From NCBI GenBank assembly GCA_029288485.1, contig JARIHC010000004.1, positions 62,001 to 126,000 on the forward strand: a DNA stretch of 64,000 nt. Direction: 5' to 3'. The position numbers and the translations under genes are program-made. Position 1 is the first letter of the stretch; the number at the start of each line of letters is the position of its first letter. Shown in pieces: positions 32,135-34,185 of the stretch. The notes under the pieces are model-generated. The model had not been told where the DNA came from. It was given only the letters and a program-made list of their open reading frames with translations, and searched no databases. Source of the stretch: Candidatus Saccharimonadota bacterium. Lineage in GTDB: Bacteria > Patescibacteriota > Saccharimonadia > Saccharimonadales > UBA4665.

Positions 32135-32157
32135 ATATCTGTTATTTCCAGCGTAAT

Positions 32158-32231
32158 GGGGCGTAGCCAAGCGGTAAGGCACCGGGTTTTGGTCCCGGGA
32201 TGCGCAGGTTCGAATCCTGCCGCCCCAGCCA
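32158..32231 (+). tRNA. tRNA-Gln (anticodon TTG)
   Basis: Cloverleaf with D arm GCC...GGC, anticodon arm CCGGG-TTTTGGT-CCCGG (anticodon TTG), T arm GCAGG-TTCGAAT-CCTGC, discriminator G and an encoded CCA (32229-32231). The 5' boundary is uncertain by a base. It lies immediately upstream of the GC-rich/hammerhead locus. Confidence 0.93.
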
Positions 32232-32242
32232 CTATCACTTTA

Positions 32243-32271
32243 TTGACTTTATTATTAATATGTGTTAGTAT
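32243..32271 (+). promoter_or_regulatory. Promoter of the GC-rich gene
   Basis: TTGACT (32243-32248), a 17-base spacer and TAGTAT (32266-32271). Transcription would begin just before the first leader hairpin at 32279. Confidence 0.5.
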
Positions 32272-32278
32272 AGTTCAG

Positions 32279-32467
32279 TTCGCTATTTATTAGCGAAAGT
32301 ACATATGTGTTGACCCGATGAGCGTGGGTTGGGAGAGCTTAAATTATTAAGAGCTGCCACCCCACTCTCCATTGAGAGTCCACAAAAACAATGCATCTCG
32401 TGGTGATCAGACTATGTCTGTTTTGGGGAACGTCGACGTTTCACTCAACGAAAGGAAAACGATCCAG
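32279..32467 (+). promoter_or_regulatory. Highly structured 5' leader with alternative pairings
   Basis: The leader opens with a perfect hairpin TTCGCTA/TAGCGAA (32279-32297). Further down are CTTAA-ATTA-TTAAG and a CTCTCC strand that can pair either with the upstream GGAGAG or, as ACTCTC/GAGAGT around a CATT loop, with the next bases downstream. A CAGAC-TAT-GTCTG hairpin then precedes a TTTT. A weak Shine-Dalgarno AAAGGA (32451-32456) lies before ATG 32468. The mutually exclusive helices suggest a switch or RNA-protein site; no known motif was recognised. Confidence 0.4.
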
Positions 32468-32905
32468 ATGGCTTCTAAGTACCAGCTGGAGCAGGATGTC
32501 AAAGACCTCCGTGGCGAGGTCGGCGAACTGCGCGAGCAGCTCGAGAACAGCGTCAAGGTCCAGCAGGCCGCGCTCCGCCGCGTCCACCTGCTGCCGGCCA
32601 ACATCGCATCGCTCGTCGATTCCGAGGCAATCGGCAACGGCGCGCTTACGTCCGACGGGCAGGGCATGACCTACCCGATCGGTGGCGACATCAACCTGAC
32701 GGTCAAGCCGTTCGAGGGCCTCTTCGAACTCACCGACATCAGCGGTCGCAACAAACCGCTCGTCGTCGAGTTCGGCCCGGAGCAGGACTTCGACCAGGCA
32801 AAGGTCCTGGCCGTCGTCGGCTTCGCCACTCTCGCCAAGCGCGGTGAGACGGGTCAGACGACCACCGACTGGGTCCGCCAGCTCAACGGCGCGGCCACGG
32901 TCTAA
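32468..32905 (+). CDS. GC-rich hypothetical protein of foreign composition
   Basis: 145 residues from ATG 32468 (AAAGGA upstream). An in-frame ATG at 32414 would add 18 residues but lies in a hairpin and has no ribosome-binding site. Residues 1-40 are a coiled-coil candidate (LEQDVKDLRGEVGELREQLE); the rest looks beta-rich and ends in a Trp-containing helix. Almost every third codon position is G or C, in sharp contrast to all neighbours, including the highly expressed ribosomal genes. This points to recent transfer from a high-GC genome, perhaps an actinobacterial host or its phage. No family recognised. Confidence 0.65.
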   Translation: MASKYQLEQDVKDLRGEVGELREQLENSVKVQQAALRRVHLLPANIASLVDSEAIGNGALTSDGQGMTYPIGGDINLTVKPFEGLFELTDISGRNKPLVVEFGPEQDFDQAKVLAVVGFATLAKRGETGQTTTDWVRQLNGAATV

Positions 32906-33040
32906 AGACCACCACGAGGAGCATGGCTCTACAATAAGGACTTAATGTCCGAACCGAGCCAGAGACGGGGTTACTAATTGCATTTGTGGATCGTTCACGC
33001 GATCATTTCAAACACAAATCTTTTAGTATTACCCCGTCTC
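32899..33040 (+). ncRNA. Structured 3' RNA with a long rod-like hairpin
   Basis: The stop codon lies in the loop of GGTC-TAAA-GACC (32899-32910). Next, TGGCTC/GAGCCA (32924-32929 / 32956-32961) encloses GGAC-TTAAT-GTCC. Directly abutting it is a 79-nt rod (32962-33040) with four helices: GAGACGGGGT/ACCCCGTCTC (10 bp), ACTAA/TTAGT, ATTTGTG/CACAAAT and GATCG/CGATC, separated by internal loops. There is no T-run, so it is not an intrinsic terminator. It ends 7 bases before the hammerhead core on the same strand. Confidence 0.6.
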
Positions 33041-33047
33041 ACTCCTC

Positions 33048-33094
33048 ACTCTGCGAATGTGTGTTCGTACTGACGAGTCCAAAAGGACGAAAGT
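33048..33094 (+). ncRNA. Hammerhead ribozyme, type III arrangement
   Basis: All core elements are present in order: cleavage triplet CTC (33049-33051), stem I TGCGAA/TTCGTA (33052-33057 / 33064-33069, one G-T wobble), CTGACGA (33070-33076), stem II GTCC-AAAA-GGAC (33077-33088), and GAAA (33089-33092). Stem III has three pairs (A33048-T33094, C33049-G33093, T33050-A33092) and is the open helix. Cleavage is predicted between 33051 and 33052. The core agrees with the CUGANGA...GAAA consensus at every conserved position. Short stem III suggests weak or cotranscriptional activity. The ribozyme ends 16 bases before the -10 box of the next gene. Confidence 0.85.
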
Positions 33095-33110
33095 AAATAA
33101 ACAAATAGCG

Positions 33111-33116
33111 TATAAT
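33111..33116 (+). promoter_or_regulatory. -10 box of the 33124 gene
   Basis: A perfect TATAAT ends 7 bases before the ATG at 33124, so the transcript would start at or within a base or two of the start codon. A clear example of the leaderless arrangement in this window. Confidence 0.6.
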
Positions 33117-33123
33117 ACTTTGC

Positions 33124-34185
33124 ATGAGTGAGCTAGCGGTGACGGAGTCGCAGAAAAAAGCGCTAGGAGTTGCTACCGGCGTAGCTTTAATAATCGGCGC
33201 CTACTTCTTAAAAAGCTACTTCTTACTTATTGTCTTTGCCGCGATCGTGGCGTTTATTTTTAACCCTCTGTATAAGTGGCTGCTAAAGCGCGGGCGCAAG
33301 CCAGGCACGGCGGCCAGCATAACTTTCTTTACCACTCTGCTAGCTTTCATCGTACCAATTACGCTGATAATTTTCGTATCGATTCACCAGATATTATCTC
33401 TTGTTCACTCTATTGGCAATGCGCATTACAGCGCGAACGTTTCAGATCTTCTAAAACACGGTGTTGACACTGTTAATCGAACTCTTAAATCGCTTCATGT
33501 GCCTTATACGTTAACAGCTGACACTGTAACGAACGGATTGAGTCACGCCTTAAAAACGTTTGGCTCCAGCCTGCTAAGTAATGTTACATCGTCTGTTAGC
33601 AGCTTCTTTACCTTCTTTACGCTAGCCATCATCTACGTCTATGTATTGTTATCAATGCTGATCAAGCAGGATCAGTTAGTTAAAACTTTTCACGCTCTTA
33701 ACCCGCTAGGGACAGACATTAGCCGGCTCTATCTTAAAAAAACCAGCGCTATGGCAAAAGCTATGATCCGCGGCCAATTTATAATTGCCTTTGCTCAGGG
33801 CCTAACAGACGCCGCACTGCTTTATATAGCTGGCTTGCACGGTACTTTTGTTTTCTTCTTGCTGTTACTCACGCTACTATCTATTATCCCTCTGGGCGGC
33901 GGTATTGTTGCTATTCCGATAGGTGTGGTTATGTTGCTAACAGGTCACATTTGGCAAGGTTTAGTAATAATACTGGGACACATTATTATAGTTACCAACA
34001 TTGACAACGTACTGCGCCCTAGACTAGTGCCGCGCGAAGCCCGTTTAGATCCAGCGCTAACTTTGTTGTCAGTATTCGCCGGACTAAAATTTTTCGGTTT
34101 TTTAGGTGTGATTATTGGCCCAATATTGATGATTTTGATAGTCACTACCATTCAGGTTTACATGAGCGTTTACCGCAAACACTAA
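33124..34185 (+). CDS. AI-2E/PerM family transporter (second copy)
   Basis: 353 residues with N-terminal TM helices (LGVATGVALIIGAYFL, SYFLLIVFAAIVAFIFNPLY), a helical external domain, and C-terminal helices with LSIIPLGGGIVAIPIGVVML and FAGLKFFGFLGVIIGPIL, the family motifs. It is a paralogue of the 27588 gene but diverged. It probably exports a small molecule or ion; substrate unknown. Any transcript reading in from the upstream locus would first pass the hammerhead ribozyme. Confidence 0.85.
   Translation: MSELAVTESQKKALGVATGVALIIGAYFLKSYFLLIVFAAIVAFIFNPLYKWLLKRGRKPGTAASITFFTTLLAFIVPITLIIFVSIHQILSLVHSIGNAHYSANVSDLLKHGVDTVNRTLKSLHVPYTLTADTVTNGLSHALKTFGSSLLSNVTSSVSSFFTFFTLAIIYVYVLLSMLIKQDQLVKTFHALNPLGTDISRLYLKKTSAMAKAMIRGQFIIAFAQGLTDAALLYIAGLHGTFVFFLLLLTLLSIIPLGGGIVAIPIGVVMLLTGHIWQGLVIILGHIIIVTNIDNVLRPRLVPREARLDPALTLLSVFAGLKFFGFLGVIIGPILMILIVTTIQVYMSVYRKH

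What the first reader, a model, noticed from the sequence alone, without database searches (positions are those of the whole stretch)
33048..33094. Hammerhead ribozyme downstream of a foreign-looking gene
Every conserved core position is present: CUC cleavage triplet, 6-bp stem I, CUGACGA, stem II GUCC-AAAA-GGAC, GAAA, and the A15.1-U16.1 pair. The core is near-textbook. Stem III has three pairs and is the open helix. Established knowledge: hammerheads occur sporadically in bacteria and phages, often with unknown roles. Inference: it trims the 3' end of the upstream transcript and uncouples it from the AI-2E gene, leaving a 5'-OH RNA.
Basis: partly seen in the sequence, partly recalled or inferred. 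Interest (0 to 1): 0.88.

Follow-up and report, generated by a model that had tools for sequence, protein, structure and literature searches.

The report
Self-cutting ribozyme ending a Patescibacteria gene
The window holds a genuine hammerhead ribozyme, and it is one of a large family that, scattered through the chromosomes of tiny parasite-like Patescibacteria, ends a special class of unusually folded mRNAs for mostly unknown proteins, apparently as a self-cutting way of making a protected RNA end.

Summary
A type III hammerhead ribozyme (HHR) lies at 33046-33096, core intact, cleavage predicted after C33051; only its stem III is weak (three pairs). It is not sporadic. This genome (a Saccharimonadales-like Patescibacterium) has 7 copies, a relative has 25. 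An exact-core scan of GTDB returned almost only Patescibacteria among named records. A covariance model hits 28 of 287 Patescibacteria at E<1e-6 and, apart from the centre genome itself, none of 298 control genomes above 25 bits.

Nearly every copy examined sits in one kind of unit: promoter, leader, one mostly orphan ORF, a strong stem-loop, then the HHR. In one Saccharibacteria subgroup the leader pairs with the segment just 5' of the HHR, with covariation. Cargo ORFs use a codon set unlike neighbouring and ribosomal-protein genes and are more RNA-structured than synonymous shuffles. Sampled neighbours are housekeeping genes, not prophages.

Best reading: stem-loop plus HHR is a self-processing 3'-end module for a class of compact, hardened mRNAs. 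Hammerheads flanking single genes were known in prophages, and the same module occurs in phage contigs. The Patescibacteria-wide chromosomal use, 5'-3' closure and structured cargo appear new. Cleavage, stability and purpose are untested.

The parts
32157..32231 (+). tRNA-Gln (UUG); left neighbour, not part of the unit
32243..32271 (+). probable promoter of the unit: TTGACT-17-TAGTAT with extended -10 TG; transcript start inferred near 32279
   Evidence: consensus match only
32279..32467 (+). structured 5' leader (limits inferred)
   Evidence: comparison with other units
32452..32457 (+). Shine-Dalgarno-like AAAGGA
   Evidence: sequence
32468..32905 (+). cargo ORF, 145 aa orphan protein (predicted N-terminal helix; low-confidence model), GC 0.65; an in-frame upstream ATG is possible
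32925..32960 (+). first 3' hairpin: GGCTC/GAGCC enclosing GGACTTAATGTCC
32962..33040 (+). long 3' stem-loop GAGACGGGG...CCCCGTCTC (-37.5 kcal/mol for 32961-33042), no U-run behind it
33046..33096 (+). type III hammerhead ribozyme; cleavage predicted between 33051 and 33052; stem III 33048-33050/33092-33094
33111..33116 (+). TATAAT, probable -10 of the AI-2E gene, which would then be leaderless
   Evidence: sequence; inference
33124..34185 (+). AI-2E family transporter gene (right neighbour)

Best explanation
The hammerhead is the last part of a self-contained mRNA unit: promoter, structured leader, one cargo ORF, 3' stem-loop, hammerhead. After transcription the ribozyme cuts just 3' of the stem-loop. 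The mature mRNA is then about 770 nt, with a stem-loop-guarded 3' end, a short tail and a 2',3'-cyclic phosphate. The ribozyme body stays on the 5'-OH downstream fragment. The module replaces an intrinsic terminator, gives a defined 3' end and separates the transcript from whatever lies downstream. Together with long-range 5'-3' pairing (shown only in one Saccharibacteria subgroup) and a cargo ORF selected for RNA structure and against AU-rich codons, it makes compact, decay-resistant single-gene mRNAs. Shown here: the motif, its covariation, its placement, the stem-loop, the leader/3' pairing in the subgroup, the codon and structure bias. Inferred: cleavage in the cell, higher stability, and the reason these proteins need such mRNAs.
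For: Hammerhead: intact core, 98.4% of cells paired, 13 of 16 pairs with compensatory change, covariation score 0.879 against 0.215 shuffled. Placement: in nearly all copies read, an ORF stop lies 35-330 nt upstream on the same strand. Stem-loop before the ribozyme: fold z about -2.9 in 159 Patescibacteria units against -0.5 to -0.9 for control stretches downstream. No intrinsic terminator in the window unit. Leader/3' pairing: own duplex -22.2 against -16.2 kcal/mol for swapped partners in 20 units; 233 of 252 pairs against 210.3 shuffled, 0 of 20000 reach it. Cargo ORFs: mean fold z -1.46 against synonymous shuffles, neighbours -0.24, p=1e-8, and 3.8 against 14.2 A/T runs of 6 or more per kb. 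Codon habit differs from background and from ribosomal-protein genes in five genomes. Modularity: two units of this genome share 230 nt of 3' module at 80% identity but carry unrelated ORFs. The same stem-loop plus type III hammerhead module follows short genes in phage contigs. Published: hammerheads flanking single genes in prophages cleave in vitro and in E. coli (PMC3088659).
Against: No cleavage or RNA data. The window copy has only three stem III pairs, with C-A at the fourth position where sister copies have C-G, so it may cut slowly or be decaying. A clear leader/3' duplex was not found for the window unit itself (-22.7 against -20.1 +/- 3.4 for shuffled leader), and its cargo ORF alone is only mildly structured (z -1.65, 5 of 60 shuffles as good). 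In some loci the hammerhead is intercistronic with the next start codon about 40 nt on (L275), so cutting can also create 5' ends. ORFs were chosen by a simple rule.
Confidence: 0.72

Rival explanations
1. Mobile cassette: the unit is an integron-like gene cassette whose attC-like hairpin is the recombination site; the hammerhead is a hitch-hiker or acts on the RNA.
For: Different orphan ORFs joined to similar ends, tandem arrays, foreign-looking composition.
Against: Nine of ten hammerhead-rich genomes, this one included, have a single tyrosine recombinase of Xer size; one has a second, divergent one. No canonical R boxes in the window hairpin (sequence). The leader/3' pairing of the subgroup spans the whole mRNA, not one site. 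No empty site could be tested.
Confidence: 0.12
2. Circular or replicating RNA: hammerhead ends are joined to make a circRNA, as in retrozymes or viroid-like agents, with or without reverse transcription.
For: Hammerheads with 5'-3' closing stems and highly structured coding RNA recall such agents (PMC7761336).
Against: Single units have one ribozyme only; RtcB ligase absent in 10 of 10 genomes; reverse transcriptase absent in this genome and in 5 of 10 overall; no opposite-polarity ribozyme in the window unit.
Confidence: 0.06
3. Host-directed mRNA: the unit makes a nuclease-hardened mRNA (or its protein) that acts in the host cell on which the epibiont lives.
For: Codon habit unlike the cell's own ribosomal-protein genes; hardened structure; cargo includes a Thoeris-inhibitor domain (Tad4, L146) and an RNA polymerase alpha-CTD protein (L143); Saccharibacteria have an essential, conjugation-like type IV secretion system (PMC10633639).
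Against: No export evidence of any kind. Fourfold codon boxes do not look like a high-GC actinobacterial host (host codon usage from general knowledge). The same 3' module occurs in phages. Most cargo has no known function.
Confidence: 0.12
4. Chance or dead hammerhead-like sequence.
For: Weak stem III in this copy; Rfam score below gathering.
Against: 66-bit match, seven copies in the genome, compensatory changes across the family.
Confidence: 0.02

Closest known systems
Hammerhead_3 (Rfam RF00008), type III hammerhead ribozyme
   Same: Full-length match, complete catalytic core, stem III open, NUH cleavage triplet CUC.
   Different: Below the family's gathering score; near-fixed stem II GUCC-AAAA-GGAC and stem I loop UGYGU typical of this clade.
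Clustered hammerheads flanking single genes in prophages (Perreault et al. 2011, PMC3088659)
   Same: Ribozymes separate single genes of changing identity, proposed to cut long transcripts into gene-length mRNAs.
   Different: Here among housekeeping genes of Patescibacteria chromosomes, often with a promoter per unit, stem-loop before the ribozyme, leader/3' pairing in a subgroup, structured cargo ORF.
Retrozymes / Penelope-like hammerhead retroelements
   Same: Repeated genomic type III (plant) hammerheads defining RNA ends (PMC7761336).
   Different: Coding cargo with start signals, single ribozyme per unit, no RT found in this genome, no RtcB ligase found.
Integron gene cassettes (attC)
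   Same: Varied single-ORF cargo followed by an imperfect hairpin, arrays.
   Different: No extra integrase seen in this genome, no R boxes, RNA-level ribozyme.

Membership tests
Type III hammerhead ribozyme | CUGANGA ... GAA core and A15.1-U16.1 pair | tested here: met
Type III hammerhead ribozyme | three helices with covariation across relatives | tested here: met
   rows were chosen by a rule that required pairing, so the percentage paired is partly by construction, the compensatory changes are not
Type III hammerhead ribozyme | covariance-model match | tested here: met
   RF00008 31.9 bits, E 3e-4, full length but below the gathering score; own model 66 bits
Type III hammerhead ribozyme | self-cleavage | not testable with these tools
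   needs in vitro transcription
Integron gene cassette | attC site with R'/R'' boxes | tested here: not met
   hairpin 32962-33040 read by eye, no GTTRRRY/RYYYAAC pair; no attC model was run
Integron gene cassette | integron integrase in the genome | tested here: inconclusive
   one Xer-size tyrosine recombinase in this genome; IntI-specific model not run
Retrozyme / circRNA element | tandem ribozymes bounding a non-coding monomer | tested here: not met
   one ribozyme, coding unit
Retrozyme / circRNA element | RNA ligase RtcB or reverse transcriptase available | tested here: not met
   RtcB 0/10 genomes, RT absent in G000
Prophage gene cluster with hammerheads | phage genes around the ribozyme | tested here: not met
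   neighbours in 14 loci match mostly housekeeping families (only the first 25 families were shown); window neighbours are glycosyltransferase-like, hydrolase and transporter genes

The most novel reading that the evidence does not exclude
Patescibacteria keep a dedicated class of hammerhead-finished, panhandle-closed, structure-hardened mRNAs that are built to survive outside the normal decay machinery, possibly delivered to or acting in the host cell as an RNA-borne effector system.
Probability: 0.12. Interest if true: 0.96.

Novelty: new variant of a known kind. Interest (0 to 1): 0.85.

Why it matters
The role of bacterial hammerheads is an open question (PMC6155905, PMC3088659). Here many copies share one strict anatomy in one bacterial radiation, tied to orphan genes with a distinctive codon and folding bias. 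That makes the role directly testable, names an apparently undescribed gene class in Patescibacteria, and offers a handle on what these epibionts express that other bacteria do not. No paper in the searched library links hammerheads with Patescibacteria, CPR or Saccharibacteria; that library lacks most subscription journals and preprints.

Tried and rejected
Protein relatives of the window ORF: none in phages, IMG/VR, GTDB contigs or 99 related genomes; plasmid, PDB, Pfam and PHROG hits are noise. Structure prediction without an alignment was poor (pLDDT 53), so no fold search was run. Empty-site test with the AI-2E flank failed because the flank is not syntenic in relatives. Translational selection as the cause of the codon habit was rejected: ribosomal-protein genes of the same genomes do not share it. 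Prophage location rejected for the sampled loci. RtcB circularisation rejected in the cell's own genome. A second or opposite-strand ribozyme in the window unit was looked for and not found.

Full report
CHECK OF THE OBSERVATION. The hammerhead is at the stated place with every core position present. Rfam's type III model matches it end to end at 31.9 bits, E=3e-4 in 3 kb, below the curated cut-off of 48.5, which is why a default Rfam scan of the window lists only two tRNAs. Stem III has three pairs; the fourth position is C-A, where sister copies of this genome have C-G.

IT IS A FAMILY. RF00008 in 99 genomes of the same order gave hits in 32, six of them in this genome; only 2 genomes pass the curated cut-off. 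A model built from 44 relatives (alignment A2, model R1) finds 7 copies here and 25 in genome G001. All the listed records with a lineage name but one are Patescibacteria/CPR (Saccharibacteria, Kaiser-, Nomura-, Collier-, Gottesman-, Falkow-, Shapiro-, Berkelbacteria and more); some are unnamed MAGs, and one is a Polynucleobacter MAG whose contig could be misbinned. In an even sample of 287 Patescibacteria, 34 match at E<0.01 and 28 at E<1e-6. In 298 control genomes of the phylum of the Polynucleobacter MAG none exceeds 25 bits. The window row was in the training set; unused copies score higher than it does. That the window genome is Saccharimonadales-like is inferred from its named relatives (for example G048 has the same length as CP023991, a Saccharibacteria chromosome).

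COVARIATION. On A2, 98.4% of cells pair, 13 of 16 pairs show double changes, and the covariation score is 0.879 against 0.215 for shuffles and at most 0.127 for slid partners. Rows were picked by a rule requiring pairing, so the percentage is partly by construction; the compensatory variety is not.

ANATOMY. In nearly every copy read the hammerhead lies 3' of an ORF stop on the same strand, behind a stem-loop. The 70 nt before the ribozyme fold with mean z -2.9 (159 Patescibacteria units) against -0.5 to -0.9 downstream. In the window: promoter-like 32243-32271 and no intrinsic terminator, ORF 32468-32905, hairpins 32925-32960 and 32962-33040, ribozyme 33046-33096. Similarity between units ends with stem III or a few bases later. 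Two units of this genome share 230 nt of 3' module at 80% identity behind unrelated ORFs. Units occur singly or in arrays, for example six on one strand within about 12 kb in G001.

5'-3' CLOSURE. In one Saccharibacteria subgroup the leader carries TTGACAAGCAGAC-like arms complementary to a segment just 5' of the ribozyme, and the two change together: own duplexes average -22.2, swapped ones -16.2 kcal/mol (20 units); 233 of 252 pairs form against 210.3 when partners are shuffled, 0 of 20000 reaching it. A convincing duplex of this kind was not seen in the window unit, so closure is a subgroup feature, not a family rule.

CARGO. Of 150 cargo ORFs only a minority match Pfam (27 families) or PHROGs (26). 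Hits include NUDIX, glycosyltransferase, Band 7, the Thoeris inhibitor Tad4 (L146) and an RNA polymerase alpha-CTD protein (L143). Sixty-nine neighbouring ORFs in 14 loci match 74 Pfam families, mostly housekeeping, without phage structural hallmarks standing out. Cargo GC3 exceeds that of neighbours by 0.19 (42 units) and 0.17 (90 units). In five genomes cargo prefers AAG, ATC, TAC and TTC far beyond both background and ribosomal-protein genes, for example G048 ATC 1.00 / 0.42 / 0.52, while fourfold boxes shift little. This looks like avoidance of A+T-only codons, not ordinary translational selection. Cargo RNA is more structured than synonymous shuffles (mean z -1.46, neighbours -0.24, p=1e-8) and has a quarter of the A/T runs. 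The window ORF shows the folding trend weakly (z -1.65).

HOW IT PROBABLY WORKS. The stem-loop plus ribozyme acts as a post-transcriptional 3'-end maker. Cutting leaves a stem-loop-guarded end with a cyclic phosphate, and frees the mRNA from downstream sequence. The rest of the unit (leader, closure in the subgroup, structured ORF) points to selection for a compact, long-lived mRNA. Cutting and stability are inferred. The same stem-loop plus type III module occurs behind short genes in phage contigs (phage-type genes confirmed in L170 and L201), and hammerheads between prophage genes are active in E. coli (PMC3088659), so the module's activity is plausible. Circularisation by RtcB is unlikely in the cell itself (0 of 10 genomes), reverse transcriptase is lacking here, and only one Xer-size recombinase is present here.

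WHAT REMAINS OPEN. Why these proteins need such mRNAs. Delivery to the host is attractive because Saccharibacteria depend on a conjugation-like type IV secretion system (PMC10633639), but nothing here shows export, and the codon habit does not match a high-GC actinobacterium in fourfold boxes. Mobility could not be tested for want of empty sites.

NOVELTY. The ribozyme class is known; single genes bounded by hammerheads are known in prophages. A Patescibacteria-wide chromosomal unit with stem-loop plus hammerhead, covarying leader/3' pairing and structure-selected cargo was not found in the searched literature, which is incomplete.

Noticed in passing
L170, L171, L183, L184, L201, L208 (IMG/VR): Phage contigs with repeated 'stem-loop (often GTGTCTTYAAAGACAC) + type III hammerhead' behind short genes; cargo GC3 only slightly raised.
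   Followed up: partly
L052-L167, 5-11 nt after the hammerhead: boxA-like TGTTCTTTGAAA motif in 19 of 133 GTDB units against 1.6 expected, suggesting antitermination or a common leader start in Paceibacteria units.
   Followed up: partly
L275 (G250:C8): MoxR-like ATPase and VWA-like protein genes, each followed by stem-loop and hammerhead, next start codon about 40 nt on: an intercistronic hammerhead.
   Followed up: no
L272 (G224:C16): Array with hammerhead-like copies reading CCGATGA instead of CTGATGA; decayed or variant cores.
   Followed up: no
L067 / L307 (Polynucleobacter MAG contig): Two units on a contig whose large ORFs match neither PHROGs nor Pfam; possibly misbinned, not proven.
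   Followed up: partly
L058, L131, L147, L281: A recurring cargo family (NLTPH...VRD..G proteins) shared by unrelated Patescibacteria lineages.
   Followed up: no
L146, L150, L073, L152: Cargo family shared among Saccharibacteria units; L146 carries a Tad4 (Thoeris inhibitor) domain.
   Followed up: partly
window 33111-33126: TATAAT seven bases before the AI-2E start codon suggests a leaderless mRNA.
   Followed up: no
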